64,000 nucleotides of DNA, from NCBI RefSeq assembly GCF_000178955.2, contig NC_016631.1, forward strand, positions 4,464,001 to 4,528,000. Direction: 5' to 3'. Shown one piece after another: positions 2,177 to 21,434 of the stretch. Under the pieces are notes generated by a model. The model saw only the letters and a program-made list of their open reading frames with translations. It searched no databases and was not told the DNA's origin. Both the position numbers and the translations under genes were made by a program. Every line of letters begins with the position of its first letter. The stretch's first letter is position 1. The DNA is from Granulicella mallensis MP5ACTX8. GTDB taxonomy: Bacteria > Acidobacteriota > Terriglobia > Terriglobales > Acidobacteriaceae.

Positions 2177-2958
2177 TGCTTCATAGCCCAACGGCTTCTA
2201 CGACTCATAGACGACGAGTTCTCGCGTATCACGAGTTCTCCCCAAAAGTGTCTTCCGATGTCTACGAGATGACACCGGATGCCTTCTCCAGACAGCTTGA
2301 GGTCGCAAAGGCTGAGGCGCAGCGGACAGGGACGCATTTGGAAGTCACCTTCGATGACGCCCATCGCTCGCAAGTGACGCTGGCGGTTCCCATACTGGAG
2401 AAACATGGGATATTGGGACACTTTTTCGCACCTGCCGCCTGGGTAGGTGCGCGCCAGGAAACGGCCAGTTGGAGAGAACTACGGGATCTCGTTGCTGCTG
2501 AACATCGCGTCGGTTCCCACGGAAACACCCATACGTTGCTCACCCAATGCTCTCCGCAGGATCTCTTGTCGGAGCTTGTAGATTCACGCCGTTGTCTCGA
2601 AGATAAGCTAGGCAACGCCGTCGATACGATCTCTATGCCAGGCGGTCGATGGAATACGGCGGTCTGCGCAGCCTGCATCGGAGCTGGCTATAAAGAGCTC
2701 TATGTTTCGGAGCCAGTCCTCGGGCTTCATCCAATTCCCTCAGCCCTCAGTGAAAGCATCGCTCTTGTCGGCCGCCTGGTTGTCCGCCGAACCATGGCAG
2801 ATCAAACTGTAGCCAACTACGTGGCTCACCACTGGGCTACAAACGCCAAACTGCTTGCAGAATCCGCAGTAAAAAGGCTCCTCAAGTATTCGATAGGCGA
2901 AGCCCGATATCAAGCCCTCTGGGCAGCGATCCTCCGGTCGCCACATCAAACGACTTAA
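2173..2958 (+). CDS. Polysaccharide deacetylase (NodB/CE4 fold)
   Basis: The 261-residue protein has the two hallmarks of metal-dependent NodB deacetylases: TFDD with D61-D62, and the H116-x3-H120 metal ligands in GSHGNTH. It has no signal peptide, so it would act in the cytoplasm or at the inner membrane face, for example on a lipid-linked sugar intermediate. The ATG at 2173 overlaps the preceding stop; a longer in-frame extension back to 1969 was rejected because it would overlap the small membrane protein and has no homology-like content. It is one of three deacetylase-like proteins in this locus. N- or O-deacetylation of the exopolysaccharide repeat unit is inferred. Confidence 0.85.
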   Translation: MMLHSPTASTTHRRRVLAYHEFSPKVSSDVYEMTPDAFSRQLEVAKAEAQRTGTHLEVTFDDAHRSQVTLAVPILEKHGILGHFFAPAAWVGARQETASWRELRDLVAAEHRVGSHGNTHTLLTQCSPQDLLSELVDSRRCLEDKLGNAVDTISMPGGRWNTAVCAACIGAGYKELYVSEPVLGLHPIPSALSESIALVGRLVVRRTMADQTVANYVAHHWATNAKLLAESAVKRLLKYSIGEARYQALWAAILRSPHQTT

Positions 2959-5429: not shown

Positions 5430-5575
5430 ATCAAAGCATGTGCAACGTATTGCATAGTGCAGCTGCAAATAGGTCTATTTACAAGCACTCGACGTGAATG
5501 TCCCAAGCTTTTCCCAGGTTTAATGTTTGGTCAGCGAATTGCCTCCATCCATCTCATCAAGAGGGAGCAAAGCGT
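5430..5575 (+). promoter_or_regulatory. Intergenic gap with palindromes ahead of the export genes
   Basis: This 146-bp gap is the largest between genes in the exopolysaccharide run. It contains TGCAA-CGTA-TTGCA (5441-5454) and the perfect palindrome TGCAGCTGCA (5458-5467) close together, then an AT-richer stretch. A promoter and operator for the export half of the locus is plausible, but no clear -35/-10 pair was identified. Confidence 0.3.
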
Positions 5576-6247
5576 ATGAAGGTCCAGAGAAATGACTTGG
5601 GTAAAGCCGCAGCGCTACTCGCACTCTATCTCCTGTGCCACGCTGTCGGCGCACAGTCTCCTCGAGTTGAAGCACCCGGATCGCATGCAATGGCCAGCGG
5701 CAGCAAGGCTACCGCAAGTTCAAACGCATCTACCTCACCCCTCACCGTCGTAGATCTCCCCATCGTAGAGTCCTACAAGATTGGCTGTGGAGACGTATTA
5801 AATATCTCGGTTTGGAAAGAGCACGACCTTAGTCCTACGGTGACAGTTCGCCCTGATGGAAAGATCTCGATGCCTCTGGTCGGCGAGATGACCGTGACCG
5901 GACTAACACCCAACGATATTGAGCAACTGTTACGGACACGCCTCGCTAGCATCGTGGTAGATCCGAGAGTTACAGTCACGGTCGCGGAGATTCACAGCCG
6001 GATGGTCTACATCACCGGCGAGGTAGCACGCCCAGGGGCCTACCCTCTCAACTCACCTCTGAATGTATTGCAGCTTATTGCGCAGGCTGGGGGGCTCACC
6101 CAATTTGCGGCTCGTAAAAAAATCACGGTCATTGCACCCAACTCAGCGGGGTCCGGCGTGAGGCTTGACTACAACAAGCTCATTCATTCGCCTAACTCCA
6201 GCCAGGCCATGTGGCTTACACCGGGAACGACGGTGGTTGTTCCATGA
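5576..6247 (+). CDS. Wza-like polysaccharide export protein (Poly_export + SLBB), short form
   Basis: The 223-residue protein has a signal peptide (about residues 1-26, cleavage after AVGA), then the polysaccharide export domain (about 67-150; YKIGCGDVLNISVW and VRPDGKISMPLVGE) and one SLBB domain (about 153-205; VYITGEVARPGAYPL). E. coli Wza has about 380 residues with extra domains and a C-terminal helix that forms the outer-membrane pore; both are missing here, as is a lipobox cysteine. It should therefore form a periplasmic collar and need another protein to cross the outer membrane. The ATG at 5576 follows GAGGGAG; an in-frame start at 5498 lacks this site and would bury the signal peptide. 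Confidence 0.85.
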   Translation: MKVQRNDLGKAAALLALYLLCHAVGAQSPRVEAPGSHAMASGSKATASSNASTSPLTVVDLPIVESYKIGCGDVLNISVWKEHDLSPTVTVRPDGKISMPLVGEMTVTGLTPNDIEQLLRTRLASIVVDPRVTVTVAEIHSRMVYITGEVARPGAYPLNSPLNVLQLIAQAGGLTQFAARKKITVIAPNSAGSGVRLDYNKLIHSPNSSQAMWLTPGTTVVVP

Positions 6248-7515
6248 ACAACCAACAACATCGTCGTCACTCCTGGAGGAGTCTTGGAGGGCTGTCTATT
6301 TCTTTGCTAGCGCTCTCTAGTGTTGCAATATCGGCAGCGCAGTTGCCTGTAATTGCCGATACCCACAGCATGCCTCGTGTCGCCGAGGGCAGCTACTACA
6401 CGATGCAATGGTTAGAGCCATCGCTATCGGTGAGCTCCGGATATGACACCGCCGCCGATGACATCCCGGATGCATCGGGAGGTCTGGTCACGGTAGAAGG
6501 AAAGCTCGGTGTTAATTTTCGACACGAACGGTCGAACCTGATGCTCCAACACGACGGTCAGGTCGTCGACTCAATCGACACCGGCATTGGCGTACAGCAG
6601 TATCAGAGAACATCCTTAGTCTTTGCGGATAGGGCATCGCGTTCTACCTCGTGGAGCTTCCTGGCGGAAAACGGCTATGGGTCAGACGCGGCACGCGATG
6701 TCGGCAACCTGAATACCGCAACGTTGAATACGGTCAAGGTTCCCGACACCAACACAGTCGCATTCGGCAACGTGACCGGCAACACTCTCACTGACCGTGC
6801 CCTGCTTGCTGTCGATCATCAACTGACCGCGGTGCGGACACTGTCGCTTGGTGGTGATGCGACCTTTCATCATTACTTTGATCAGGGCGTGTCCGATCAG
6901 CGTTACAGCGTCAATCTTGGACTGCGGACGGATCTTAGGAATGACATCACCGTCGGTGTCAGAGCAGAGGGGGTTCGAGAAAGCTACAACCATCTGAACT
7001 GCACAACGGCATCGATAACGGCATTTGCAGACCTTTCTTTCAATCGAGACACACTCCTGCAGGGAGGCATCGGGCCGATCCTGGGCTCAGCTGAGTGCTC
7101 AGGAAACTATCAGTACAACGTCACGCTAAGTAAGAGCACAATGCGTGGAACGACCGTCTATCTCGGCAGTACGCGCCAGGTCAGCGATGGATTCGTGAAT
7201 CAATCCACGTGGGAAACCGCAAACTTCGGTGGAGTCTCTTTGGGACAAACACGAACTGCATTAGTCAATTTAGACGCAGGTTATGCACATTATGAGATCG
7301 GTAATCCCACGCCGGCCAATCCCAACCTTCATGGCTATTTTGTTTCCGGTGAGCTCCGGCACCGGCTCAGCAATGATTCCGAATTGTCATTAACAGCACG
7401 GTACTTCTCTCGTGGCCCCAGCCCAGTAGAGCTTTCCCGTGGAGTCTTCTTACTCACATACCGCTGGGCGCGGGAACAGCGGCCAACGAGAACGTTCGAT
7501 TCTGGAGGTAGGTAA
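6244..7515 (+). CDS. Outer-membrane beta-barrel candidate of the polysaccharide locus
   Basis: The 423-residue protein has a signal peptide (about residues 1-33, hydrophobic core GLSISLLALSSVAISAA) and a mature part of alternating polar/nonpolar short strands (for example LEPSLSVSSGYDTA, GVNFRHERSNLMLQH, SLGLRTDLRNDITVGVRAEG), ending in aromatic and hydrophobic strands (VFLLTYRWAR). This matches the outer-membrane barrel proteins encoded beside Wza/Wzz-type genes (EpsL-like). It overlaps the short exporter by ATGA. Inference: it supplies the outer-membrane channel that the short exporter lacks. No family-specific motif was recognised. Confidence 0.65.
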   Translation: MNNQQHRRHSWRSLGGLSISLLALSSVAISAAQLPVIADTHSMPRVAEGSYYTMQWLEPSLSVSSGYDTAADDIPDASGGLVTVEGKLGVNFRHERSNLMLQHDGQVVDSIDTGIGVQQYQRTSLVFADRASRSTSWSFLAENGYGSDAARDVGNLNTATLNTVKVPDTNTVAFGNVTGNTLTDRALLAVDHQLTAVRTLSLGGDATFHHYFDQGVSDQRYSVNLGLRTDLRNDITVGVRAEGVRESYNHLNCTTASITAFADLSFNRDTLLQGGIGPILGSAECSGNYQYNVTLSKSTMRGTTVYLGSTRQVSDGFVNQSTWETANFGGVSLGQTRTALVNLDAGYAHYEIGNPTPANPNLHGYFVSGELRHRLSNDSELSLTARYFSRGPSPVELSRGVFLLTYRWAREQRPTRTFDSGGR

Positions 7516-8990
7516 TGAGAAATTCTAGTCCTCCCCTCGAAGTAGGGGTAGCGCGATGGATTGAAGTGATGCGGCGGAATCTGCTTCTCGCCTCTATCGT
7601 TGCACTTGGAGTCTTCGGCATCGCGACTGTGGTCATCGCAAAACTTCCAAACGTCTACCGCGCGGAGACCCGCATCCTGGTCAACCCTCAGCGCATTTCA
7701 GATAAGTATGTAAGCTCGACTGTTTCGATGGGTCCTGCCGAGCGCCTCAATACGCTTAGTCAGCAAATCCTCAGCACGTCACGGCTCGAAGCCATAACGA
7801 CCGAGTTGAATCTCTATCCCAAAGAGCGGCAGGAGTTAGGGCGCGATCGGGTGATAGATCTGATGCGGAACCACATCACCATCGACCTGAAACAAAGCTC
7901 TGACGGTCCAAGCGCCTTCACGATCTCATACACAGGTGGCTCCGCTCAGGAGGTTGCCACCGTCACCAATCGTCTCGCCGCATCTTTCATCGATTGGAAT
8001 CTTCGCGACCGGGAGCAGGAGGCCCAGGGCACAACGTTGTTTTTGGAAAAAGAGTTAGCAACCAGCAAATCCGAGTTGGACGCCCTCGAAGAGCGGCTAA
8101 GGGTCTACAAGGTGCAGCACCTCGGCCAGCTTCCCAACGAACTCGACGCCAATCTGCAGACGCTCTCACGTTTACAAGTTCAGCTCCAGGCAAACTCCGA
8201 CGCTCAAAATCGGCTTGACCAGCAAGCTCTACTGTCCAGATCCGGCTCGTATGATGCTTCGGGCGAACAAGGCGAAAATCCGCAGGCCGGGCTCCGTAGT
8301 CAGCTCGTCGCACGTGACGTGCAGGCTCATCGTGACCTTGCCGAGTTGCGTTCCCACTACACATCGGCTCACCCGGACGTCATTAGCAAAGAAGCGGAAG
8401 TGGCTTCGCTGGACACCCAACTGACACAAACTCCAGCGTCGGTATCGAGCAGAACCAGGCGCTCTGGCTCCGTTGCCTCTCCCGCCGATGCGCAGGAAGC
8501 CTCAATCCATCACAGTAGGGATCGACTCGCTGCCGAGCAGCACCAGATAGAGTCATCGATCAATAACTATCAATTTCGAGTCAACGGTGTTCCAATCCGC
8601 GAGCAAGAGATCTCACAACTGCTTCGGGACTACGATACCGCGAAAGAGCACTACCGTTCCCTGCTCGAAAAGACATACACGGCTCAAATGTCTATGGAAC
8701 TGGAGCGTGGCCAGGAGGGCGGCAGCTTCACATTGCTCGATCCTGCGCAGGTACCAGATGCGCCGATTGGACCGAATCGTCCTGTCTTGTATTCGATGTT
8801 CCTTGTCGCATCCCTTGTGGCTGGCCTTTTGGTGATCATTCTTCGCGAGCGGCTGGATAGCACCGTCAAGTCCGACGGAGAACTTCATGACATCTTGCCG
8901 CACATCCCGGTATTGGGGCTTATTCCTCGTATCTCCAAAACCATTGTCAACCACTCCCCAGCGCAACCAACTCTTCGGAGGGCCTTATGA
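7515..8990 (+). CDS. Wzz/GumC-type chain-length determinant (polysaccharide co-polymerase)
   Basis: The 491-residue protein has the standard two-helix topology: TM1 near residues 20-40 (LLLASIVALGVFGIATVVIA), a large periplasmic part with VYRAETRILVNP at its start and long helical, coiled-coil-like stretches (about 160-400), and TM2 near 421-442 preceded by the proline-rich DAPIGPNRP. Wzz/GumC proteins set polymer length and link the polymerase to the exporter. It begins one base before the end of the barrel gene and overlaps the kinase gene by ATGA, so kinase and co-polymerase are separate chains as in the CapA/CapB arrangement. The C-terminal tail after TM2 is short and cytoplasmic and likely contacts the kinase. 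Confidence 0.88.
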   Translation: MRNSSPPLEVGVARWIEVMRRNLLLASIVALGVFGIATVVIAKLPNVYRAETRILVNPQRISDKYVSSTVSMGPAERLNTLSQQILSTSRLEAITTELNLYPKERQELGRDRVIDLMRNHITIDLKQSSDGPSAFTISYTGGSAQEVATVTNRLAASFIDWNLRDREQEAQGTTLFLEKELATSKSELDALEERLRVYKVQHLGQLPNELDANLQTLSRLQVQLQANSDAQNRLDQQALLSRSGSYDASGEQGENPQAGLRSQLVARDVQAHRDLAELRSHYTSAHPDVISKEAEVASLDTQLTQTPASVSSRTRRSGSVASPADAQEASIHHSRDRLAAEQHQIESSINNYQFRVNGVPIREQEISQLLRDYDTAKEHYRSLLEKTYTAQMSMELERGQEGGSFTLLDPAQVPDAPIGPNRPVLYSMFLVASLVAGLLVIILRERLDSTVKSDGELHDILPHIPVLGLIPRISKTIVNHSPAQPTLRRAL

Positions 8991-9835
8991 TCACTCTCAA
9001 CCTCAGGGAGTATCAAACCATTGAACCGCATCTGATGATCGCATCGGCGTCGAACGGAGACGCGGGATCGCCCCACAAACATCAGAACGCAGTAGTTGAT
9101 CGCCCTGCCAGCGATCAGTCCGATGCGATCAACTGGCTGAACATGGTTCCGAAGCTGGAACGCTTGCCGCAAAAGCACAGGACAACTATCGCCTTCGAGT
9201 CCGGCGCAGACAGTCGCGCATGTGAACAGTTTCGCCTCATGCAGCATCGCCTTGTTACTGCACGGCCGGCTGGCGGTGTCGTGCTGATTACGAGTCCTAG
9301 TGCTGAAGATGGCAAGAGTCTTAACTGTCAAAATCTGGCGTGGGCACTTGCGGAGGCCGGGCACAAAACTCTTCTGTTGGATCTCGATCTACGACGTCCC
9401 TCACTGCTGGCTGCTTTAGGCGGTGTCTGTCCACAGAGTATCGAGCAGGTGCTTAAGGGAGAGGTCACGCCCGAAGCAGCGATTCGGTCAGTTGGCGATC
9501 TGCCTCTGTACATTATTGGTCTCGATAAGGCGGTATCTAAACCAGTTCCGCTCTTGAGAGCACCGGAACTATCGAATTTATTGAAGTGGGCCCAGAAGAA
9601 CTTTCAATGGGTTCTCCTGGATGCGCCGCCCGTTCTCCCCGTTGCAGACGTTGAACAGTTGCTTCCAAGCGCAGATCTCGTACTTATGGTTGTTCGCGAA
9701 CGTGTCACTCGACGGGCAGCGGTGCAACGTGCTGCTGAAATGCTCGGCGAACATCTCAGCTCTTTAATCTTCAACGATGTCACCATGTCCATCGCCGCTG
9801 GCTACGGAGCTAACTACGACCGCGGCTACAGATAA
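8987..9835 (+). CDS. BY-kinase (CpsD/CapB-like) tyrosine autokinase
   Basis: The 282-residue protein contains the bacterial tyrosine kinase ATPase core: Walker A SPSAEDGKS (about residues 103-111) followed by NLAWALAEAG, Walker A' LLLDLDLRRPS (about 127-140) and Walker B VLLDAPPV (about 206-213). Three tyrosines close the C-terminus (AAGYGANYDRGYR), the usual autophosphorylation cluster. It has no membrane segment, so it would dock on the preceding Wzz-like protein, whose gene it overlaps by ATGA. It should regulate polymer length and export by phosphorylation cycling. The Walker A begins with S rather than G, which is common in this family. Confidence 0.87.
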   Translation: MITLNLREYQTIEPHLMIASASNGDAGSPHKHQNAVVDRPASDQSDAINWLNMVPKLERLPQKHRTTIAFESGADSRACEQFRLMQHRLVTARPAGGVVLITSPSAEDGKSLNCQNLAWALAEAGHKTLLLDLDLRRPSLLAALGGVCPQSIEQVLKGEVTPEAAIRSVGDLPLYIIGLDKAVSKPVPLLRAPELSNLLKWAQKNFQWVLLDAPPVLPVADVEQLLPSADLVLMVVRERVTRRAAVQRAAEMLGEHLSSLIFNDVTMSIAAGYGANYDRGYR

Positions 9836-9887: not shown

Positions 9888-12800
9888 ATGAAAGCACTCA
9901 TCAACACCTTCATACGGGTCACATCCATCCGCAACGGAGGCATCCTAGCCGCACTCCTGATTCTACTGGGCATGGGGAGCCAGATCCTGGCTCAAACTCA
10001 AGACCTGACCGTCGTCGTCCTCGTTAACTCCACGGCGACGAGCGACTACAACACCAATAAAACTACGCCAGGCACCTATCAAATGGGGCCGGAGCGCTAC
10101 TTCGTCCATCTTCAGATACCTTATCGAATTATCGATGTTAGCCAGACGGCTCCTCCCGATCTCACAACCGTTCAGCTCATCATCGCCGGCCACGCTCATC
10201 TCTCGCTCAACGCCACTTGGCAGAACGCCATTGCGACGGCAGTGCAGGGTGGCACGGGCTTCGTGAACCTCGACACCGACCCCTCGGTCGGGCTTCAATT
10301 CCACATTCAGAGGATCTTTGGAGCCACCGGCTCTACTGTCGGTAATGATCAGACGAGTGTGGTCGTCCCCGCCGCAGTACAAGTCGGCGGAGCCACGCCA
10401 CACTACATCGCCGCACTGCAGATGCACTGGGCAGGCGATCCCGCTGGCGACATCATCTACACGTACCACGGCAACGGTGTCACCGTCGTTCCGTCTGATG
10501 CGACTCTACTCACCGGCGCCAAGGGAACAGTCGTCGCTCGTCTCGGCACGGATCCACTCATCATCGCCACAACCTTCGGAGCAGGTCGTGCCGTCGACTT
10601 CACGGACTACGACTACATGCGCCAGGATCGCTTCGGCTTCGTCGAAGGTGCCGATGATCTCTTCTGGAGAAGCATCGTCTGGGCAGCTCGGAAACCGTTT
10701 GTTCTTCGTGGATACCCACGTCTTTCCGCGATCCAGATGGATGACAACGAGACCGGCATCATGTCTCGAATTCCTGATATGTGGAACACCACGCTTACTG
10801 GGACCGTCGCAAGCGATGGCACAGGCGGTCCATGGAAGCCGCAGATAAACATGCAGCTATCAGGGCTTGAGGGGCCTGGCGGTGAGCGCGCGCAGATGAT
10901 CACCGCTATTCAGGCCGGTCAAGTGCACGCCTCAGCTCACGGATTGAACTATGGCTCTGGCGGAGATTTGTACTGGAATCTCACCGTCCCCAACACAGAC
11001 GCTCAGTGGCAGGCAAACGTCGCCTCAGCCCTGAAGTGGATCACCGAAAATGGCGGAACCGATACGTTCCCGCCCCTCAGCCGCTCCATGGTGGCTCATT
11101 ACTGGGACATCTCCAACAACTCCGGCTACGAGATGTACAACAGTCTCGGTGTGCGTTACGTTACCTCGCCACAGGCTCCAGGGGTCTACTATTTCACGGT
11201 TCCGAAAACACCCGCGCAACGTATACCGCTTGGCCCATTCCGCATCTATGAGCAGCCGCCCCTCTATACGGGAGACGAGGAAGAGACCTTTCCTTTCTTC
11301 TATGCCGACGACATGACTATCGGCAGCGTAAGTGGAAAACCCGCTCAAACCTTCTTTGCCTTCGGCAGCCAGGTAGGCTTGTCCGCGGGACGCTTTACAC
11401 GTCCCGATGCACTTTGGCCCAGCACAACCAACGACTCCACCGTGGCCCAAAGCCTCAATCAGTGGGAGTACTACATGTGGCACTTCTGGTCTGGTATGGA
11501 GCCGGTTCAGATCTACACGCACGATGGCGATAACCTGGAATACTCCACCGTCGCCGATCGTCAGTCCTTCATCAAGCAGTTGTCCCAGTGGTTCAGCACG
11601 AACCACGGCCAACATACTTTTATGGACAACATGGGTGACTATCTGCGCGCACGCAATCATTCACTTCTGTCGACTGCCTCACTCAACAGTACATCTATTA
11701 CGCTGAACTTCACCGGGTCTGCAACAGATGCCGATGGCCACCTCATCGGTACCAAAACTTACATCTTCTATGGAGATACCGAAGGAACACTTCTCGATAT
11801 ACCAGGCTTCGCCAACGGCGCTACCTACAGCTTTCCCAACACGCTTCCGGCCAAGCTTCAGCTTGATCCGCTCACGCTTTCGTTCGCCGCAACCACAGGC
11901 ACTTCCACCCCAAGTCAGTCGATCACAGTAGCGAATGCCGGTTCTGGTGCTATCAGTTGGACCGTAACCAGCAACGCCGCCTGGCTGACTGCGACTCCGA
12001 GCAGCCGTTCATCGGCCGGAACTACTGTAGTCAGTGTCGCCAGCAGCACTCTCGCCGCCGGCACCTATACCGGAGCACTAACGTTCACTGCAACCGGCGC
12101 TCTCAGCAGTCCGCAGACGGTTCCAGTTACGCTTGTAGTCGCCACACCGTCCCTTGTTCCTTCTCCCACATCCGTTTCCTTTAGTGGAACCGTTGGCGGC
12201 ACTGCTCCGACTGCACAGACCGTCGCGATCAACAATCCAGCCGGAACAAGCCTCACATGGACCGCCACCTCCGATTCAACATGGCTCAGCGTGAGTGTAG
12301 TTACGGCTGGAACACCGGGCTCGATTTCGGTATCGGTCGTACCGGGCTCGCTTCCGCTCGGCACTTACACGGGCAATATCACGCTCAAACCATCGTTGAA
12401 CACCATAGCAACCGTCAAGATCCCAGTTACTTTCCTGCTGTCTGGCGTGATCGATGCGCCATCCACAGCAAACCTTAGCGCCTGGACAGTGTCTCCACTC
12501 GGCAACTCAGCCGGCTGGACATCCTCTGGTGGTTCCATTCACTACAACGGAGGCGGCGAATCCCAGTTGTACACCGGCTCCTCGACCTGGACTGACTACG
12601 ACCTCTACGTGAACCTGACGCTCTCTAACCTGTCGGATTACCCAGGTGGCATTCGGGCTCGCGTCAATCCTGCGACCGGGGCAGGATATGCACTCTGGAT
12701 GTATCCGGCAGAACACACCCTCACTTTATACAGCGTTGTTAACTGGGCGATCGGCAATGGATATACCACGTTGACCAGCACAGGTAACATCGCGTACGAC

Positions 12801-14111
12801 ACAAACCCGCACACACTCCGCTTGAGTGTCCACGGCACGCAAATCTCCGCTTACTTTGACGGCGCTCAAGTCTTGACCGTCGCCGATAGTACGTACTCTT
12901 CCGGAGAGATTGCGCTCGATCCATCCAATCAACCGCTGGCCTTCAACAGCGTGACCGTAAGCAGCACATCAACACAACCTGCATCGTTCACGGCTTCTCC
13001 CACTCCTCTTAGCTTCACCGCAACGGCCGGCACGGCTAACCCGCCAACCCAAGCCGTAGCACTTACCTCTTCCCCTTCCCCTGTCACGTGGACAGTCACA
13101 AGCAATGCAAGCTGGCTGACCGCATCGCCTACTTCAGGAACCACAACCCCAAGCAGTACATCGGCAGCAGTCAATATCTCTGGACTCACAACAGGAAGCT
13201 ACAACGGCATACTGACCTTCACCCCATCAGCAGGCTCGCCAGTCCAGGTACCCGTCACACTTACCCTCACAGCAACGTCGTCCGCAACGCTCGCCGTAAC
13301 TCCAACAACGCTGGATATCTTCAGCGCTGTCGGTTCATCTCCTCCACCGGTCACGCTTACGGTCGCCAACACGGGTACTGGGAGCATGCCTTGGACAGCT
13401 TCGAGCAATCTCGTTTGGCTAACACCTTCGCCTGCCAGTTCGAGCGGAGCGGGGACCCTAACACTGACGCCATCCACTGGAAACCTACCCAGCGGTAACC
13501 AAATGGCAAATGTAACGGTAACGGCTCCGGGCGCTGCGAAGAGCCCCATCACCGCGACCATTACACTTCACCTCGGTACGTTGATCTTTAGCGACAACTT
13601 CGCCAACGGATCTACACAGTGGACCCCGTCTCCTCTTGGCTTGGCAAGCAACTGGACCGTAGCAAACAATGCCTTCAACTACAACGGCAACGGCCACACG
13701 CAGCAGTATGCGGGTAGCCAGTCATGGGCAAATTACATCGTCTCCACAGGCTACAAGCTCTCAAATCTCTCAAACTACCCGGGCGGTCTGCGAGCACGCG
13801 TGAATCTCACCAGCGGTGCTTCCTATACTGCATGGGTCTACCCTGCTGACCACCTCATCAAGCTGTTCCTAACCAGCGGCTGGAATATCGACACAAGTCC
13901 ACTTACTCTCCTGGGCACATCGCCGGTGATCTTGTTCGACACGAACGTGCACATGCTCCGCATCGCCGCGATCGGCAATCAGATCACGGTCTACTACGAC
14001 AACACCGCGGTCATCACGGCCACGGATTCCACTCTACCGACCGGGGCAGTTGCATTGGATGTCTCATCGCAGCCGGTCAGCTTCAGCACCGTAAGCGTAA
14101 TTCAGCAGTAA
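9888..14111 (+). CDS. Secreted multidomain protein: amidotransferase-like fold, divergent deacetylase-like region, four BACON repeats, duplicated C-terminal module
   Basis: The 1407-residue protein has a signal peptide (about residues 15-36, ending SQILAQ). Residues 38-270 resemble a class I glutamine amidotransferase-like sandwich (LIIAGHAHLS, GGTGFVNLD). Residues about 280-640 contain D285-D286 in QMDDNE and H347-x3-H351 in HASAH, the spacing of NodB deacetylase ligands; this is my inference. BACON-like repeats (LSF...TSNASWLT pattern) lie at about 657-750, 754-850, 1033-1125 and 1132-1225. Two copies of a roughly 175-residue module (NYPGGLRARVN, AYLDGA/VYYDNT) lie at about 853-1025 and 1231-1407 and look like laminin-G/concanavalin sandwiches. 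ATG 9888 follows GAGGCG; an upstream in-frame start at 9777 lies inside the kinase gene. It probably binds and modifies the exported polymer. Confidence 0.7.
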   Translation: MKALINTFIRVTSIRNGGILAALLILLGMGSQILAQTQDLTVVVLVNSTATSDYNTNKTTPGTYQMGPERYFVHLQIPYRIIDVSQTAPPDLTTVQLIIAGHAHLSLNATWQNAIATAVQGGTGFVNLDTDPSVGLQFHIQRIFGATGSTVGNDQTSVVVPAAVQVGGATPHYIAALQMHWAGDPAGDIIYTYHGNGVTVVPSDATLLTGAKGTVVARLGTDPLIIATTFGAGRAVDFTDYDYMRQDRFGFVEGADDLFWRSIVWAARKPFVLRGYPRLSAIQMDDNETGIMSRIPDMWNTTLTGTVASDGTGGPWKPQINMQLSGLEGPGGERAQMITAIQAGQVHASAHGLNYGSGGDLYWNLTVPNTDAQWQANVASALKWITENGGTDTFPPLSRSMVAHYWDISNNSGYEMYNSLGVRYVTSPQAPGVYYFTVPKTPAQRIPLGPFRIYEQPPLYTGDEEETFPFFYADDMTIGSVSGKPAQTFFAFGSQVGLSAGRFTRPDALWPSTTNDSTVAQSLNQWEYYMWHFWSGMEPVQIYTHDGDNLEYSTVADRQSFIKQLSQWFSTNHGQHTFMDNMGDYLRARNHSLLSTASLNSTSITLNFTGSATDADGHLIGTKTYIFYGDTEGTLLDIPGFANGATYSFPNTLPAKLQLDPLTLSFAATTGTSTPSQSITVANAGSGAISWTVTSNAAWLTATPSSRSSAGTTVVSVASSTLAAGTYTGALTFTATGALSSPQTVPVTLVVATPSLVPSPTSVSFSGTVGGTAPTAQTVAINNPAGTSLTWTATSDSTWLSVSVVTAGTPGSISVSVVPGSLPLGTYTGNITLKPSLNTIATVKIPVTFLLSGVIDAPSTANLSAWTVSPLGNSAGWTSSGGSIHYNGGGESQLYTGSSTWTDYDLYVNLTLSNLSDYPGGIRARVNPATGAGYALWMYPAEHTLTLYSVVNWAIGNGYTTLTSTGNIAYDTNPHTLRLSVHGTQISAYFDGAQVLTVADSTYSSGEIALDPSNQPLAFNSVTVSSTSTQPASFTASPTPLSFTATAGTANPPTQAVALTSSPSPVTWTVTSNASWLTASPTSGTTTPSSTSAAVNISGLTTGSYNGILTFTPSAGSPVQVPVTLTLTATSSATLAVTPTTLDIFSAVGSSPPPVTLTVANTGTGSMPWTASSNLVWLTPSPASSSGAGTLTLTPSTGNLPSGNQMANVTVTAPGAAKSPITATITLHLGTLIFSDNFANGSTQWTPSPLGLASNWTVANNAFNYNGNGHTQQYAGSQSWANYIVSTGYKLSNLSNYPGGLRARVNLTSGASYTAWVYPADHLIKLFLTSGWNIDTSPLTLLGTSPVILFDTNVHMLRIAAIGNQITVYYDNTAVITATDSTLPTGAVALDVSSQPVSFSTVSVIQQ

Positions 14112-14134: not shown

Positions 14135-16081
14135 ATGAGTAACCCGACCCAATTGAAAACCGAACCGGAACACCAGTACCAAGCCGGTTCGAGTGGATCG
14201 GGTGCTCAGCCGCGAGTGTTGGCACCGATCATCGTGTCCGTCCTCCTCTCTGCCGCCTGGATCTATCTGGCCTTCTTCAAGCCGTTACCTCGGGTCGAGG
14301 GCCTCCTCTTCACTTCACTCGCCGCGCTGTGGTGCGGCGGACTCTTCACGGCGGTAACCGCAAGCGCACGTTACTGGAGCCAGCAGCCAGCTTCCCTCGG
14401 TCCTCTACGTACGGATCTCGCCAGATGCTCGCTTGCCTCCGTAGTCTTTCTTATCTTCATCCCCGAATACGTTGCTCGTGTTCCACCAACCGCTCTCCGC
14501 TCCGGCCTGCTCCTGACATCCGTCGCTATACTCTGGTTTGCCCTCTGTATCTGCAATATTCAACGCGCGCGCGGAAAGCGACTCCAAGTAAAAGCAGCAC
14601 ATGCGTTCGGGCTTACCGCGATCGCCATTTTGTTTACCGCAGTCACGGCTTTGGCGATTCGAAAGTACTGGGCTTTCTCTTACGTTGGTCAGGACCTCGC
14701 CTACTTCGGCCAGTTGATGCACACTACGCTTCACGGTCATCTATTTTGGGGGAACTTACTCCAGGACCTACTTTATTCCCGTCCAGTCACAACTGATTTC
14801 GCTGGTCACAACTCGCCGATCATGTTCCTCCTGTTGCCGTTTTATGCAGCAGCACCCAGTCCGGTTACTCTGATCGTCGTTAGAAATATAGTTCTCTTTA
14901 GCTGTGCCATACCTGTATTCCTTATCGCACGCAGCAGGATGTCCACCGTCACTGCGTATCTGTGGGTCTTCGCATTTCTACTCACACCCGCCATCCTGTA
15001 TCAGTCCGTCTTTGACTTCTATCCCCTGACCCTTGTCGCGCTTCCATTACTCTTCGCGATTTATTTCTTTCTGGAAGACCGTTTCATAGCTTTCACGATC
15101 GCGATCCTACTCACGCTACTCGTTCGTGAAGATCTCGTCTTCGTTGTCTTCGGCTTGGGATTGCTGGCTATCGTTCGCCGTCGGCCAATAAAGTGGGCAC
15201 TCCTGCCAATCGTCGCTGCAACACTCTGGGCTATATTGTCTTTCCTTGTCGTCCTTCCCAAAGGCCTTCATGGTGCCAGCTTCGTAACAGATACGTGCTT
15301 CGCTCATCTGGGCAAGTCACCCTCTTCGATGCTGCATAACATCCTCCGCGATCCGCGAAGCACTGTTCTCATTCACGCCAACATCGTCTACCTCAAGACG
15401 CTATTGAGTCCGACTGCAATTATCGAATCCGTCGTAAATCCGATCTCTTCCCTCTCAATTCCGTACCTCGCCATCAATCTCCTGGCTGGCGGAGGCCGTT
15501 GCATCACGACCGTAATCTACGCACAATACTCGGTTATTCCAGCAACATTGCTGTTCGTAAGTGCTCTCCTCACAGTGATCTCCCGGCAGAGGTCGAGCCG
15601 GGTCGCCAAGGCGGCCCGGCTCGGAACACGTTCGGACAACGCCGCCCCACTTCTCCTTATTGCTCTCAGCTTTTGTAGTCTCATCTTCGTAACCGGAGCG
15701 CAGCAGGTCGACGATCTGAGAGAGCATCCCTGGAATCCCGAGGCCCGCAAGGTCTTGGCACTCATCCCAGCGGATGCCTCCGTCGCCGCTCCTCGTTATA
15801 TGCTCCCTCACCTCGCCAATCGCGACTGCCTGTACCAGACGCACCGGCTCCTCGAATATCACACCGCCCACTACGAGTACCTCATCCTCGATAGAGATTG
15901 GGAACACATCAACGCAGCGGAGCAGTATGCAGCCGAGTACAAAGCCGTCATCTCCGACGCATCCACAAATCCGGCACTGCAGACCATCTACTCCAGCCCG
16001 CAGTTTCTCGTATACAAGGACCCTTCCATGCATGGCCTATCCTGCTGGCCTGGTGCTGGTATTCATCGGGGGCAGCCATGA
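14135..16081 (+). CDS. DUF2079 polytopic membrane protein
   Basis: The 648-residue protein has about 12 hydrophobic helices. The first long extramembrane loop carries D-L-A-Y-F-G-Q (near residue 188) and TTDFAGHNSPIMFLLLP (near 220), the conserved acidic/His signature of the DUF2079 family, which is distantly related in layout to GT-C glycosyltransferases that use polyprenyl-phosphate sugars. The C-terminal soluble part (AAPRYMLPHLANRDCLYQ, DRDWEHINAAEQY) is also typical of the family. A periplasmic glycosyl transfer to the polymer or its precursor is a reasonable inference, not shown. GGAGG lies 9 bases upstream of the ATG; the stop overlaps the flippase start. Confidence 0.8.
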   Translation: MSNPTQLKTEPEHQYQAGSSGSGAQPRVLAPIIVSVLLSAAWIYLAFFKPLPRVEGLLFTSLAALWCGGLFTAVTASARYWSQQPASLGPLRTDLARCSLASVVFLIFIPEYVARVPPTALRSGLLLTSVAILWFALCICNIQRARGKRLQVKAAHAFGLTAIAILFTAVTALAIRKYWAFSYVGQDLAYFGQLMHTTLHGHLFWGNLLQDLLYSRPVTTDFAGHNSPIMFLLLPFYAAAPSPVTLIVVRNIVLFSCAIPVFLIARSRMSTVTAYLWVFAFLLTPAILYQSVFDFYPLTLVALPLLFAIYFFLEDRFIAFTIAILLTLLVREDLVFVVFGLGLLAIVRRRPIKWALLPIVAATLWAILSFLVVLPKGLHGASFVTDTCFAHLGKSPSSMLHNILRDPRSTVLIHANIVYLKTLLSPTAIIESVVNPISSLSIPYLAINLLAGGGRCITTVIYAQYSVIPATLLFVSALLTVISRQRSSRVAKAARLGTRSDNAAPLLLIALSFCSLIFVTGAQQVDDLREHPWNPEARKVLALIPADASVAAPRYMLPHLANRDCLYQTHRLLEYHTAHYEYLILDRDWEHINAAEQYAAEYKAVISDASTNPALQTIYSSPQFLVYKDPSMHGLSCWPGAGIHRGQP

Positions 16082-17583
16082 GCCAGTCGCCCTCCCTCCT
16101 GCGAGACGTCAGACACTATCTCTCGGGCAAGGTCTTCCTCATCCTTCTCGGCTTCATCTCATTCCCCATCATGACGCGCATGCTCTCTGTCGCGGACTTT
16201 GGAATCGTGTCGCTGACCTTGCGCATCGCTCTCCTGCTGACAGTCCTCTCCAAATGCGGCCTGCAGTACTCCGCTGCACGTTTCTACGATCATCAAACAG
16301 CAACCCCGTCCCACGCGGCCTCGCAGAAGTTCTACACCACGCTGGTCTCTGCTCCAGCTCTCATCACCTTTGTAGTCGTAGCAATCTACTATCTCCTCAT
16401 CGCCTCGATCAGGCATCGCATTGCGGATCCTCTCTTCTACAACTGTCTGCTTCTGGTTCCGGCAGTCGTTGTTCCGCGCACACTGCAATCCGTCCTCCTC
16501 TCGTTCCTTCGCAACGAAGGCCGCAGCCTGCTCCATAGCGTGCTTGAAGTATGTACAAAGGCCCTCACCATATGCGGGTTCTTCGCCCTGATCTTTGGAA
16601 ATCTCCGCAGCGCGTTCTATGTGCTTGCGATCACCGCAATCGCTGAAGGAACGATCGTCCTCTGGCAGCTCGGAACGCTTGTATGGCGTCGCATGATCCA
16701 CTTCAGTGCGTTGGATGTTGGGTTTGTTCGCTCTGCCGTGCTCTTCGGAGCTCCGCTGATTGCATACGAGCTTTCGAGCATCGTACTCGATTCAGGCGAT
16801 CGTCTCCTCATCCGCCACTATCTCGGAGACGTCTCCCTCGGCTATTACTCCGCGGCCTACAACGTCTCCAGCTATCTACAGGACACCCTGGTTACGCCTC
16901 TGAATCTTGCCATCGTTCCGATCTACATGCGTCTATGGAACCCCAAGGATAGTTCACCCATCCGCCGTTTTCTCTCCCAGGGACTTTCATGGTTTGCGGT
17001 AGCAGCCTGTGCGATGACAGGCCTCGCTATCCTCTGCTCAAAGGATGCAATTGTCATCGTTGCATCCGCCAAGTTTATTGAGGCCAGGCACCTGCTTCCA
17101 ATCCTCATTCCCAGTCTGATGATCTACGGCGCCCACATCTTTCTTACTGTCGGCCTCATCCTTGAGAAGCGCACCGCAGCGATGGCAGGCCTTGTAGCTC
17201 TGGCGGCGGTGGTCAACGTGCTTCTAAATATCATTCTCATTCCGCGCATCGGTCTGGCCGGCGGCGCCTGGAGCACGCTCCTGAGCTACGCACTCCTCAT
17301 CGGACTTCTCGCCGTCATCAATCAACGGATACTCCCTCTTCAGTTAAACTTTCGGCTCATGCTCCAGGCTGCACTCGCAACGGTCGTAGCCGCCGTGCCC
17401 ACGTCGCTGATTCACACAGGTCTTCCCATCGTCAGCCTCGTACTGAGATCCTCGCTGTTTCTCCTTTGCTTCACACTTGCGCTCGCAGTTATGTCTTTGC
17501 CGTTCCGGGAGGCTGCCCGGGCCATCCTCATGCGTAAAAGCATGCCACTAGCGCTACCCCTCGGTACTGGAGGTAATGCATGA
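16078..17583 (+). CDS. Wzx-like polysaccharide flippase (MOP superfamily)
   Basis: The 501-residue protein consists of about 12-14 membrane helices, with an N-terminal YLSGKVFLILLGFISFPIMTRMLSVADFGI segment (shown here in part as RMLSVADFGI) typical of oligosaccharide flippases, and a central DSGDRLLIRHYLGDVSLGYYSAAYN block matching the family's repeated second half (RLLIRHYLG, LGYYSAAYN). Such proteins move undecaprenyl-diphosphate-linked repeat units to the periplasmic face. The ATG at 16078 overlaps the preceding TGA; a long in-frame N-terminal extension (to 15898) lies inside the DUF2079 gene and was rejected. Its position directly before the polymerase supports the assignment. Confidence 0.88.
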   Translation: MSQSPSLLRDVRHYLSGKVFLILLGFISFPIMTRMLSVADFGIVSLTLRIALLLTVLSKCGLQYSAARFYDHQTATPSHAASQKFYTTLVSAPALITFVVVAIYYLLIASIRHRIADPLFYNCLLLVPAVVVPRTLQSVLLSFLRNEGRSLLHSVLEVCTKALTICGFFALIFGNLRSAFYVLAITAIAEGTIVLWQLGTLVWRRMIHFSALDVGFVRSAVLFGAPLIAYELSSIVLDSGDRLLIRHYLGDVSLGYYSAAYNVSSYLQDTLVTPLNLAIVPIYMRLWNPKDSSPIRRFLSQGLSWFAVAACAMTGLAILCSKDAIVIVASAKFIEARHLLPILIPSLMIYGAHIFLTVGLILEKRTAAMAGLVALAAVVNVLLNIILIPRIGLAGGAWSTLLSYALLIGLLAVINQRILPLQLNFRLMLQAALATVVAAVPTSLIHTGLPIVSLVLRSSLFLLCFTLALAVMSLPFREAARAILMRKSMPLALPLGTGGNA

Positions 17584-19064
17584 CGCTGCTCGCATTCATC
17601 TTCCAGGCAGCGCCTTCAGCTGGTAGCTTCAGCGGCCGTGCGCTTGCCCTCTACGCTCTCGTGGTGATCTGTGCGTTCCTGGCGCTCACCTGGAAGGCTG
17701 AGATTGGTATCTACATCCTCACGCTGCTTCTCCCGCTGCAAACCACCAGGTATCACCTGCACGCATTTCCACTTGGCGCGAACATCGTCGATATTCTCCT
17801 CGCATGCTCACTTCTCGGCATGTGGATGAGGCCGAACAAACTCAAGGAACCGCATCCCTTTGTATTGCGCTTCGTTGTTGCCCTCGCCATCTTCTACTAC
17901 GTATCGCTCTGGCGAGGTGCTTTCTTCCTTGGCGCTCCCCTTCCAGTCTGGTTCAAGGACGCACGATTAGTTGATTACAAGAACTTCATGGTTCTCCCGC
18001 TCCTTGCATACACCACCTATCGGCTTATCCGTACCAAGCAGCAGGTTGCAATCGTCATCTGTTTAGCGTGCTTCTCGTCTCTCCTGGTCGACTACAGCTA
18101 CCTCAAGAGTTCCCTGGGACGTGACTTCAGTCACTACTCCGAAGAGGCACGTGACGCCGGACCCTTGGGCTACGCAGGAGAAAATGGCCTGGCCTCCTAC
18201 GTCGTCGAGATCACTGCTTTCATGATCCCGATGCTCGCTCTGAAACGCCGATGGCTGGCAGTTCCAGTCGGCGTTCTTTTGGCGGCAAACTTCTGCTGCA
18301 TCCTCTATTCCTACTCAAGGGAAGCCTACCTGGCTATCGCGTTGGCCTTACTCTTTCTTGCCATCGTCAAATTCCGATGGCTTCTCGTTCCTCTGCTCGC
18401 TGTTGCGTTTATGTGGCAGGCAGTCATGCCTGTCGCTGTGCAGGAACGCATCAACATGAGCTACTCACAGAAGGACAGCGGCGAGGCAGCTCAACTCGAC
18501 GCATCGGCACAGGAGCGCGTGATGCTCTGGACCGATGCCCTGACGATCTTCCACGAAAACCCAGTCGTTGGTACAGGTTTTCTGACCTACGCGAACATGA
18601 ACCGCGTTGGCTCCTACAAGGACACACACAACTTCTATCTCAAGATGCTCGTGGAGACCGGCGTCGTCGGACTCGCTCTATTCATCACACAACTGTTTCT
18701 CTTCTGCCGGCAGGGTTTCAAGCTCTACCTGTCGAAGTCGTCCCACTTCTTATCGCTCATCGGGCTCGGATTCGCTGCCTTGATCCTGGCAGCGGCGGTC
18801 GTAAACATCTTCGGCGATCGTTGGATGTTCACTCAGGTCGATTCCAACCTATGGATCTTCCTGGGCTGCGTCATGGCTGCCCCCGCCATGACGCAGCAGA
18901 CCGCTACAGAGGAATCCGAATCGGTTCCTGCCGCTGCCGGCGCTCAGCCTTTTTTTCCTCGTCCCGGATTTGTCAGAGTTAAACCTGCACCCCTGCCCGG
19001 CGATCACGCACACGCCACCGCCTACGTCCTGGCTTCGCCAAAACTGACGAGGGATGGACTATGA
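17580..19064 (+). CDS. O-antigen ligase/polymerase family protein (Wzy-like)
   Basis: The 494-residue protein has about 11 membrane helices and the Wzy_C signature in its large periplasmic loop: ERVMLWTDALTIFHENPVVGTGF followed by THNFYLKMLVETGVVGLALF (key residues W, NPVxGxG, DTHN). This family joins lipid-linked repeat units into polymer (Wzy) or ligates polymer to acceptors (WaaL); the adjacent flippase and Wzz-like gene favour polymerase. The proline-rich C-terminal tail (about residues 440-494) lies after the last helix. ATG at 17580 overlaps the flippase stop by ATGA, and its stop overlaps the next start in the same way. Confidence 0.87.
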   Translation: MTLLAFIFQAAPSAGSFSGRALALYALVVICAFLALTWKAEIGIYILTLLLPLQTTRYHLHAFPLGANIVDILLACSLLGMWMRPNKLKEPHPFVLRFVVALAIFYYVSLWRGAFFLGAPLPVWFKDARLVDYKNFMVLPLLAYTTYRLIRTKQQVAIVICLACFSSLLVDYSYLKSSLGRDFSHYSEEARDAGPLGYAGENGLASYVVEITAFMIPMLALKRRWLAVPVGVLLAANFCCILYSYSREAYLAIALALLFLAIVKFRWLLVPLLAVAFMWQAVMPVAVQERINMSYSQKDSGEAAQLDASAQERVMLWTDALTIFHENPVVGTGFLTYANMNRVGSYKDTHNFYLKMLVETGVVGLALFITQLFLFCRQGFKLYLSKSSHFLSLIGLGFAALILAAAVVNIFGDRWMFTQVDSNLWIFLGCVMAAPAMTQQTATEESESVPAAAGAQPFFPRPGFVRVKPAPLPGDHAHATAYVLASPKLTRDGL

Positions 19065-20276: not shown

Positions 20277-21434
20277 ATGGCACGCATCGTCTTCCTGACA
20301 TCCCTCGGGCTTCTCCTCTACACCTATTTCGGATATCCCCTGCTCCTTGCACTTCTCAGCCTCTCGTTTCGCAGGCAGGCAACGCGCCCCTCGACAGATT
20401 TCACTCTCAGCGTGGTCATCTGTGCTCGTAACGAAGCACATGGTATAGGCAACAAGCTTGAGGACACGCTCTTACTCAACTATCCCTCTGACCAGCTTCA
20501 AATTATCGTCGTATCGGATGGATCTACAGATGAGACCTGCAAGATCGTAGAAGGCTTCGCGGACCGCGGTGTCGAACTTATCGTGCTTGCTCATCAACGC
20601 GGCAAGACCCATGCGCAGAACGTGGCAGTCCGCCAGGTTCGCGGCGACATCGTCGTTTTCTCTGACGCCACGACAAAGTACTCGGCGGATGCACTGCAGT
20701 ATCTCGCAGGAGTATTTATGGATTCCGATGTCGGTGCTGTCTCCGGTCGCTATCTCTACGTAAACCCTAAGACTCACTCTACGACCACCACGGGAGCGAA
20801 GGCCTACGCCGGCTTCGACAATACCATTCGCTCGCTGCAGTCCCGCGTCAACAGCATCACTGGCTGTTGTGGCTGCATCTATGCGGTTCGCCGCGCCCTC
20901 TATACAGATCTGCGCGATGACATTATCAGCGATCTGGTGCAGCCGTTATATGTGCTGCGCAAAGGATTTCGCGTGAAGTATGAACCCAGAGCCATCGCGT
21001 CAGAAAATGCCACCAGCTCGCCCAGACAAGAGTTCTCCATGCGTGCTCGCGTGGTCGCCCGCGCTCTCATGGGCCTCCTCAGCGTCTACGAACTTCTGCT
21101 GCCGTGGCCGCATCCCTGGTATGCCTTTCAATTGTGGTCGCACAAACTACTCCGCTTTGCAACGCCTCTCCTCTGCTCGGGTATCTTTCTCTCATCCCTT
21201 CTGCTTTGGCGCTCACACCACATTCAGGTTTTCCTGGCTCTCGAGGCGTCTCTGCTTGTGCTGGCACTCATTGCGGCATTGATCCCTCGAAGCAATCGCC
21301 CTCGCATTCTCGCTCTTCCGCTCTATTTCATGACCGTAAATGCGGGCATGGTGGCAGGCATCGTCCAACTGCTTCGCGGAAATCGGCATGTGATCTGGCA
21401 ACCAGAAAGAGAGAAAGCCAATGCGAACAGCTGA
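20277..21434 (+). CDS. Family 2 glycosyltransferase with C-terminal membrane helices
   Basis: The 385-residue protein has one N-terminal membrane helix, then a GT-A domain: SVVICARNE, IIVVSDGSTD (nucleotide binding), VVFSDATTKYSADAL (metal-binding acidic region), and an acceptor/catalytic segment SDLVQPLYVLRKG. Three or more helices close the C-terminus, as in processive or membrane-bound GT2 enzymes of the cellulose/hyaluronan-synthase type. ATG 20277 was chosen because AAGGAG lies about 10 bases upstream and the previous stop is one base away; an in-frame start at 20247 lies inside the upstream gene. It may be the enzyme that elongates or initiates a branch. Confidence 0.87.
   Translation: MARIVFLTSLGLLLYTYFGYPLLLALLSLSFRRQATRPSTDFTLSVVICARNEAHGIGNKLEDTLLLNYPSDQLQIIVVSDGSTDETCKIVEGFADRGVELIVLAHQRGKTHAQNVAVRQVRGDIVVFSDATTKYSADALQYLAGVFMDSDVGAVSGRYLYVNPKTHSTTTTGAKAYAGFDNTIRSLQSRVNSITGCCGCIYAVRRALYTDLRDDIISDLVQPLYVLRKGFRVKYEPRAIASENATSSPRQEFSMRARVVARALMGLLSVYELLLPWPHPWYAFQLWSHKLLRFATPLLCSGIFLSSLLLWRSHHIQVFLALEASLLVLALIAALIPRSNRPRILALPLYFMTVNAGMVAGIVQLLRGNRHVIWQPEREKANANS

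What the first reader, a model, noticed from the sequence alone, without database searches (positions are those of the whole stretch)
9888..14111. Giant secreted protein inside the export operon with a concealed deacetylase-like site
Within a protein with no obvious catalytic annotation, QMDDNE (D285-D286) and HASAH (H347-x3-H351) reproduce the metal-ligand spacing of NodB deacetylases, after an amidotransferase-like N-terminal domain. It is followed by four BACON repeats and two copies of a C-terminal sandwich module. A periplasmic or surface deacetylase carrying many glycan-binding modules, made together with the polymerase and exporter, would parallel PelA or PgaB in function but with a different architecture. 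I know of no described system with this arrangement.
Basis: partly seen in the sequence, partly recalled or inferred. Interest (0 to 1): 0.75.

Follow-up and report, generated by a model that had tools for sequence, protein, structure and literature searches.

The report
Hidden sugar-polymer deacetylase in polysaccharide operon
A large secreted soil-bacterium protein, encoded among the genes that build and export a sugar polymer, has the layout of known three-domain enzymes that trim acetyl groups off such polymers, although its catalytic part is too divergent to prove this from sequence alone.

Summary
The gene, domains and residues are real: a cysteine-free, secreted-type protein of 1407 aa in a Wzx/Wzy/Wza-type exopolysaccharide operon (Granulicella mallensis or a very close relative). 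Its core (38-655) has no Pfam family and is rare within Acidobacteriota (9 of 396 genomes). The bare DD...HxxxH pattern is weak (10% of shuffles). Conservation is informative but modifies the proposed site: over 16 homologues D285 and H351 are invariant, H404 and H545 15/16, D286 13/16, H347 only 10/16. All 10 operon copies keep all six residues; the 6 copies found elsewhere lack H347. The amidotransferase-like domain has no cysteine. Its profile matches the N-terminal region of CE18 (Agd3-type) deacetylases (P=9.4e-4; 0 of 150 shuffles), whose binding domain is itself GATase/ThuA-like. The order alpha/beta/alpha, putative esterase, beta cap is that of Agd3 (CE18) and PelADA (CE26), so the arrangement is not undescribed. 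Homology of the catalytic domain is not significant, and both structure predictions failed. Confidence 0.55.

The parts
9888..14111 (+). Gene of the secreted-type multidomain protein P0001 (1407 aa)
   Evidence: ORF of homologue L006 starts one codon later (9893 in L006)
9888..9995 (+). Probable Sec signal peptide, residues 1-36
   Evidence: read from sequence; cleavage site inferred, no predictor run
9999..10706 (+). alpha/beta/alpha (GATase1/ThuA-like, CBM87-like) domain, residues 38-273; no Cys
   Evidence: weak hits in distant members or profile, CE18 profile match, Cys count; boundary placed by analogy
10707..11672 (+). Putative carbohydrate-esterase (NodB-like) domain, residues 274-595
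   Evidence: conserved D/H set; position by analogy to Agd3/PelADA; homology not statistically shown
10740..10745 (+). D285-D286 (MT1/CM1-like); D285 16/16, D286 13/16
10926..10928 (+). H347, conserved only in the operon clade (10/16)
10938..10940 (+). H351, invariant (16/16)
11097..11099 (+). H404 (MVAHYWD), 15/16
11520..11525 (+). H545-D546 (IYTHDG; MT5/CM4-like), each 15/16
11673..11852 (+). Short beta-rich cap, residues 596-655
   Evidence: aligned in the members of A2; 51-61 aa in 14 of 16, longer as cut in L016 and L018; beta character and analogy to Agd3/PelADA inferred
11856..12146 (+). BACON_2 domain 1
   Evidence: E=6.4e-11
12147..12446 (+). BACON_2 domain 2
   Evidence: E=5.8e-6
12447..12977 (+). 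Sandwich module 1 (PF06439-like)
12984..13280 (+). BACON_2 domain 3
   Evidence: E=1.8e-10
13281..13583 (+). BACON_2 domain 4
   Evidence: E=1.2e-8
13584..14108 (+). Sandwich module 2, 73/159 identical to module 1
1969..2958 (+). CE4 (Polysacc_deac_1) gene of the operon
   Evidence: E=6.1e-19
5498..6247 (+). Wza-type export protein
7515..8990 (+). Wzz/GNVR chain-length protein (XrtA-system-like)
8987..9835 (+). Tyrosine-autokinase-like ATPase, immediately upstream
14135..16081 (+). DUF2079 membrane protein, immediately downstream
15898..17583 (+). Wzx-type flippase (mechanical ORF; start probably near 16078, as in L003)
17580..19064 (+). Wzy/O-antigen-ligase-like protein
21421..22578 (+). Second CE4 (Polysacc_deac_1) gene of the operon
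   Evidence: E=6.6e-21

Best explanation
P0001 is a secreted polysaccharide deacetylase of the three-domain type known from Agd3 and PelADA (NDST1 has the first two domains). A catalytically empty alpha/beta/alpha domain holds the chain, a metal-dependent esterase domain removes acetyl groups, and a short beta domain caps the core; a BACON/sandwich tail binds or spaces the enzyme along polymer or cell surface. It would act in the periplasm or outside on the polymer made by the surrounding Wzx/Wzy operon. Proposed chemistry: D285 is the base, H545 (helped by D546) the acid, and D286 with H351 hold the metal, with H347 as third ligand in the operon clade and H404 as the family-wide candidate third ligand. 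Shown: secretion-type start, operon position, tail domains, residue conservation, a profile match of the alpha/beta/alpha part to CE18 proteins. Inferred: fold of the catalytic domain and of the cap, metal, substrate, and every catalytic role.
For: The core occurs with changing tails: BACON and sandwich (L004), BACON (L005), TIG and sandwich (L021, L023; L021 also Big_2), Big_2 (L022), a MopE motif (L024, L025) (7 proteins), or no tail (L017 ORF of 609 aa). Polar residues of the second domain kept in 15-16 of 16 homologues include D285, H351, D371, H404, N411, Y454, H545 and D546, a His/Asp set typical of a metal site. Single distant members hit GATase1_like (L017, E=0.01) and ThuA (L013, E=0.008) weakly (GATase1_like in 3 of 16), the folds to which the binding domain of Agd3 is closest (PMC7229062); the window protein itself does not hit them. 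No Cys. hhalign of A2 with an 11-sequence CE18 alignment: score 39.5, P=9.4e-4; 150 block shuffles gave at most 27.7 and reversed A2 14.2; 12 other families of the operon (one of them its CE4 gene) gave 11.6-20.7. The CE18 set is genuine: its 10-sequence version finds Agd3 at E=1.1e-52 and NDST1 at 1.1e-5 in PDB. An invariant Trp lies 20 residues before DD in our family (W265) and 19 before it in CE18. In 10 of 10 genomes with the operon copy the kinase and DUF2079 neighbours are the same and all six candidate residues are kept.
Against: [quoted passage not shown]), a widespread fold. The part after DD gives nothing (15 of 60 shuffles reach the observed score), and pieces with the junction and DD are reached by 7 to 48 of 60 shuffles. 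With another alignment of CE18 the P-value is 0.0032, with one CE18 sequence 0.04. No CE4 or CE18 Pfam model hits. H347 is not conserved; three homologues lose D286, one of these also H545, and another loses H404. Both structure models failed. The operon has two other deacetylase candidates.
Confidence: 0.55

Rival explanations
1. The core is a metal-dependent enzyme of another kind (for example another hydrolase or a lyase acting on the polymer) built on a different second domain; the resemblance to deacetylase motifs is convergent or accidental.
For: No significant match of the second domain to CE4 or CE18 by any method tried; the bare DD..HxxxH pattern is common by chance (10%). The conserved set D285/H351/D371/H404/H545 is not tied to one chemistry.
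Against: An Agd3-like binding domain before DD, an invariant Trp at nearly the same distance, a downstream hydrophobic-His-Asp motif and a short domain after it follow the Agd3/PelADA order; the alpha/beta/alpha domain matches CE18 far above controls.
Confidence: 0.27
2. A non-catalytic glycan-binding or scaffold protein: the second domain descends from a deacetylase but serves to bind polymer, together with BACON and sandwich modules, to hold the polymer at the cell surface.
For: Three homologues (L013-L015) have lost D286 and H347, one of them also H545, so the fold can evidently be kept without the full site. Many accessory modules. Two ordinary CE4 proteins in the operon could do the deacetylation.
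Against: All 10 operon copies keep all six candidate residues; D285 and H351 are invariant down to 22% identity, which argues for catalysis.
Confidence: 0.13
3. A plain CE4/NodB deacetylase with the triad D286/H347/H351.
For: Residues and spacing are present and kept in 10 of 10 operon copies.
Against: H347 10/16 and D286 13/16 across the family; no PF01522 match in 16 members although PF01522 finds the operon's two real CE4 genes; no Arg-Pro pair of an MT3 motif near H404; hhalign P=0.43 and 0.56.
Confidence: 0.05

Closest known systems
PelADA of Bacillus cereus (CE26 + CBM114; PMC13254593)
   Same: Order alpha/beta/alpha (62-253), esterase (254-543), C-terminal beta domain to 610; DD near the start of the esterase (D262/D263), HxxxH, distal catalytic His (H488) with a nearby Asp (D491); encoded with the polymer machinery. 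The minimal homologue L017 (609 aa) has nearly the same length.
   Different: PelADA is membrane-anchored, has no BACON/sandwich tail, and belongs to a Pel synthase operon, not a Wzx/Wzy one. In 6 of 16 of our family the HxxxH is lost.
Agd3 of Aspergillus fumigatus and bacterial homologues (CE18 + CBM87; PMC7229062; Pfam PF25115)
   Same: Three-domain order; GATase1/ThuA-like binding domain without the Cys triad; DD early in the CE domain; profile match of the N-terminal part (P=9.4e-4).
   Different: PF25115 does not hit our family; all 10 CE18 sequences in A4 keep both His of HxxxH, 6 of 16 of ours do not; no significant match of the CE part.
NDST1 N-deacetylase region (PMC10864358, passages)
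   Same: Rossmann-like N-domain plus (beta/alpha)7 deacetylase; D319/D320, H389/H393, H529; found by the CE18 profile.
   Different: Animal enzyme fused to a sulfotransferase; our A2 profile did not find it in PDB at E<=10.
PelA (CE21; PMC12022489) and PgaB/CE4 (PgaB recalled and from passages on it)
   Same: Periplasmic deacetylases encoded with the polymer exporter.
   Different: PelA has four domains including a hydrolase; the operon's CE4 proteins are recognised by Pfam, ours is not.

Membership tests
CE4 / NodB (PF01522) | Matches the CE4 profile | tested here: not met
   No PF01522 hit at E<=10 in 16 members; with a 21-sequence CE4 model the window protein scores no better than reversed sequences, and the best forward member (L014) has E=6.1; hhalign P 0.43 and 0.56
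CE4 / NodB (PF01522) | MT1 Asp-Asp and MT2 HxxxH metal site | tested here: inconclusive
   Present in the window protein and 10/10 operon copies; H347 lost in 6/16, D286 in 3/16
CE4 / NodB (PF01522) | MT3 Arg-Pro motif | tested here: not met
   Region around H404 reads SRSMVAHYWD; no Arg-Pro pair there in any of 16; assumes that this is the MT3 region
CE18 (Agd3_CE, PF25115) | Match to PF25115 | tested here: not met
   Own genome 0 matches; none in 16 members by Pfam scan at E<=10; true members found in G032 and G109
CE18 (Agd3_CE, PF25115) | N-terminal CBM87-type alpha/beta/alpha domain | tested here: inconclusive
   hhalign P=9.4e-4 (whole core) and 1e-4 (part alone); 0 of 150 and 0 of 60 shuffles reach it, but the match is short and the fold is common
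CE18 (Agd3_CE, PF25115) | CM1-CM4 residues (DD, HxxxH, Arg, His) | tested here: inconclusive
   DD and distal His present; HxxxH only in the operon clade; a candidate Arg (R452, GPFRIYE) in 12/16
CE26 + CBM114 (PelADA) | Sequence relationship to PelADA | not testable with these tools
   No PelADA sequence could be obtained; the A2 profile hit only 3soz in PDB (E=0.25)
Class I glutamine amidotransferase | Catalytic Cys of the Cys-His-Glu triad | tested here: not met
   No Cys in P0001; [quoted passage not shown]
Three-domain polysaccharide deacetylases (works like) | Metal-dependent deacetylation of the operon's polymer | not testable with these tools
   needs protein and polymer

The most novel reading that the evidence does not exclude
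The core is the founder of a further carbohydrate-esterase family of the Agd3/PelADA/NDST1 kind with a rearranged metal site (D285/D286, H351 and H404 instead of HxxxH, with H347 a lineage-specific addition), working in a Wzx/Wzy operon and carrying its own BACON/sandwich tail; copies outside the operon have lost, or never had, parts of the site.
Probability: 0.35. Interest if true: 0.6.

Novelty: new variant of a known kind. Interest (0 to 1): 0.45.

Why it matters
Deacetylation decides charge, adhesion and protection by exopolysaccharides. Three-domain or related deacetylases are being given new CAZy families one at a time (CE18, CE21, CE26 in the papers read) because sequence tools miss them. 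This would be another such enzyme, in Acidobacteriota, in a Wzx/Wzy-type rather than a synthase-type system, with natural variants lacking residues of the site that could show which ligands matter.

Tried and rejected
I drew nothing from them and ran no fold search, since low-confidence models give meaningless matches.

Deeper families: searches of PDB sequences found no deacetylase (nothing; only 3soz, E=0.25, in the alpha/beta/alpha part; only an unrelated chain, E=1.6). PDB holds Agd3, but our profile does not reach it at E<=10.

DUF2194 (PF09960): a weak hit in L018 (E=0.03). Loci found with this model in the phylum (13 of 396 genomes, all below its cut-off) mostly read, by eye, as membrane proteins of the GldG/ABC-auxiliary kind (name recalled); L020 reads by eye as a GH42-like protein (name recalled). 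So this match probably reflects only the alpha/beta/alpha fold. The weak genome hit G717 (L037) is likewise a different protein.

CE4 comparison set: of the 29 loci returned, L068 (same gene as L065) was left out, and a motif filter kept 21 of the other 28 (dropped: L042, L043, L044, L045, L053, L056, L065). The negative CE4 result rests on these 21, on Pfam, and on the operon CE4 family (score 18.7).

A register by eye (AG-x6-H351 against AGHEIGSH of CE4) would make H351 the first, not the second, metal His; this is a reading, not a test.

No homologue in plasmids, phages or viral contigs (14 stretches matched a pattern, none confirmed). Whole genomes were searched with the profile only within Acidobacteriota; the scan of the wider genome collection reaches close relatives only, so other phyla are open. 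Neighbours of the non-operon copies: NDP-sugar epimerases beside L013 (in L021), a GT4 beside L014 (in L023); the ORFs tested in L024 (1), L025 (2) and L026 (3) hit no Pfam family and some may be spurious; those beside L015 (in L022) were not scanned.

Literature: DUF2194+deacetylase, Granulicella+exopolysaccharide+deacetylase and BACON domain+deacetylase+exopolysaccharide returned 0 papers; CE18+carbohydrate esterase+Acidobacter returned 1, on a CAZyme tool (listing); Terriglobus+exopolysaccharide+gene cluster returned 3, seen only in the listing. 'Not described' means in these searches of this library only.
Full report
What is there. The gene 9888-14111 (+) encodes 1407 aa starting with a signal-peptide-like sequence and containing no cysteine. 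The nearest named genome found is Granulicella mallensis X5P3 (96% over the core), so the window is that species or very near it. It lies in an exopolysaccharide operon: amine-oxidase-like FAD protein, CE4, two GT4, Wza, a porin-like protein (below cut-off), Wzz/GNVR, tyrosine-kinase-like ATPase, this gene, DUF2079, Wzx, Wzy-like, GT4, GT2, CE4. Several components resemble the XrtA/PEP-CTERM sets of NCBIfam below cut-off. The tail is BACON-BACON-sandwich twice.

The core. Residues 38-655 hit no Pfam family above cut-off. Relatives: 4 loci in the genome collection (a search that reaches close relatives only), 10 of 397 genomes of the order, own genome included, and 10 of 396 genomes of the phylum, own genome included, at E<=0.001, one of which (G717) is a different protein, so 9 of 396. 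Other phyla were not searched with the profile. Sixteen sequences, the fifteen others at 22-96% identity to the window's, were aligned (A2; L007, a copy of L006, and L001 and L002, copies of the window and of L003, were left out). The core stays while the tail changes: BACON and sandwich, BACON, TIG and sandwich, Big_2, MopE (7 proteins scanned), or none (L017). That marks 38-655 as the functional unit.

Conservation. In the second domain, polar residues kept in 16/16 include D285, H351, D371, N411 and Y454; H404, H545 and D546 in 15/16; D286 in 13/16 (His in L013-L015); H347 in 10/16 (Gln in L013-L015, Thr in L016 and L018, Glu in L017). At 22% identity the placing of single columns depends on the alignment. 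The 10 sequences with the full set are exactly the 10 that sit between the kinase and DUF2079 genes. The 6 without H347 show no such pair of neighbours; for L016 and L018 a contig end hides one side, and near L013 a kinase-like ATPase (28%) lies several kb away on the other strand. The 10 are also one clade at 72% identity or more, so location and ancestry cannot be separated.

Is the motif more than chance? DD followed 40-140 residues later by HxxxH occurs in 10% of 20,000 shuffled cores and in 3 of 33 window ORFs (this protein, one true CE4 gene, one glycosyltransferase); a stricter pattern written after seeing the protein in 1% of shuffles. The motif alone would not carry the claim; family-wide conservation of D and H does suggest a metal site.

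Relation to known deacetylases. CE4: none detectable. CE18: the Pfam model PF25115 does not match our family, but found genuine members in two other Acidobacteriaceae genomes (1 of 61; the same and one more of 99). With one of these I found plasmid-borne homologues (13 records; 9 of 13 fetched) and aligned them; the 10-sequence profile recovers Agd3 (E=1.1e-52) and NDST1 (1.1e-5) from PDB. hhalign of A2 with the 11-sequence CE18 set gives score 39.5, P=9.4e-4; reversed A2 14.2, 150 block shuffles mean 18.0, maximum 27.7; 12 other families of the same operon, those with at least 7 sequences, 11.6-20.7. Less favourable variants: P=0.0032 with the 10-sequence alignment A4, P=0.04 with one CE18 sequence. 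Single members against a CE18 model reach at best E=0.013 (L018, for 1000 sequences), the window protein only E=41, among reversed sequences. [quoted passage not shown]). The part after DD is at background (16.3; 15 of 60 shuffles at least as high). Pieces spanning the junction and DD put our DD on CE18's DD in three of four trials, without significance (14, 7 and 9 of 60 shuffles; the fourth piece gave no real alignment, 48 of 60).

What this adds up to. Agd3 has an alpha/beta/alpha domain (141-364) closest by DALI to GATase1- and ThuA-like proteins and lacking the Cys triad, a CE domain (365-733) with D377/D378, H510/H514, R613, H668, and a C-terminal beta domain (733-806) (PMC7229062: abstract, sections 7, 8, 13 and passages read). 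PelADA has alpha/beta/alpha 62-253 acting as a CBM, CE 254-543 with D262/D263, H350/H354, R458, H488, D491, and a beta domain to 610 (PMC13254593: abstract, sections 4, 5, 9, 11 read). NDST1 has a Rossmann-like N-domain, D319/D320, H389/H393, H529 (PMC10864358: passages read). PelA, CE21, was read in abstract and section 5 (PMC12022489). Our core has a GATase/ThuA-like cysteine-free domain to about 273, then D285/D286, conserved His at 351, 404 and 545, and a probable beta cap to 655. From first Asp to last catalytic His: 291 (Agd3), 226 (PelADA), 210 (NDST1), 260 (ours, D285 to H545). The order and spacing fit; the fold of the middle domain is inferred, not shown.

Mechanism offered. As the polymer crosses the periplasm or leaves the cell, it lies along the alpha/beta/alpha groove into the cleft; a metal held by D286, H351 and a third His activates water with D285 as base; H545, tuned by D546 as PelADA's H488 may be by D491, protonates the leaving group. 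In the operon clade H347 can be the third ligand (HxxxH). Because 15 of 16 keep H404 and only 10 keep H347, H404 is the better family-wide candidate. The tail keeps the enzyme on polymer or surface. Substrate and linkage (N- or O-acetyl) are unknown. Every step here is inference from conservation and analogy.

Verdict.

Noticed in passing
L013:1501-3360, L014:1487-3346, L015:1501-3375: Homologues outside the operon with MDHN in place of MDDN and Gln in place of H347; L015 also has Asn for H545. Possibly inactive or re-tuned copies.
   Followed up: partly
L016 and L018 (genome G575); read in L024 and L025: Two copies of the core whose proteins also carry a MopE-type metal-binding motif (PF11617); no operon neighbours seen.
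   Followed up: no
L082 (G032), L084 (G109): Genuine CE18 (Agd3_CE) proteins in two other genomes of the same bacterial family, with Ig-like repeats (by eye) before the core; CE18 and our family are separate there.
   Followed up: partly
window 21421-22578: The second CE4 protein matches PF01522 in two pieces about 86 residues apart, between the FDDG motif and the HTxxH motif.
   Followed up: no
window 14135-16081: A DUF2079 membrane protein follows directly in all 10 operon genomes; its role in the polymer pathway is unknown.
   Followed up: no
L088, L090, L092: Bacterial CE18 genes lie directly before pelF on Streptomyces and Thermus plasmids.
   Followed up: no
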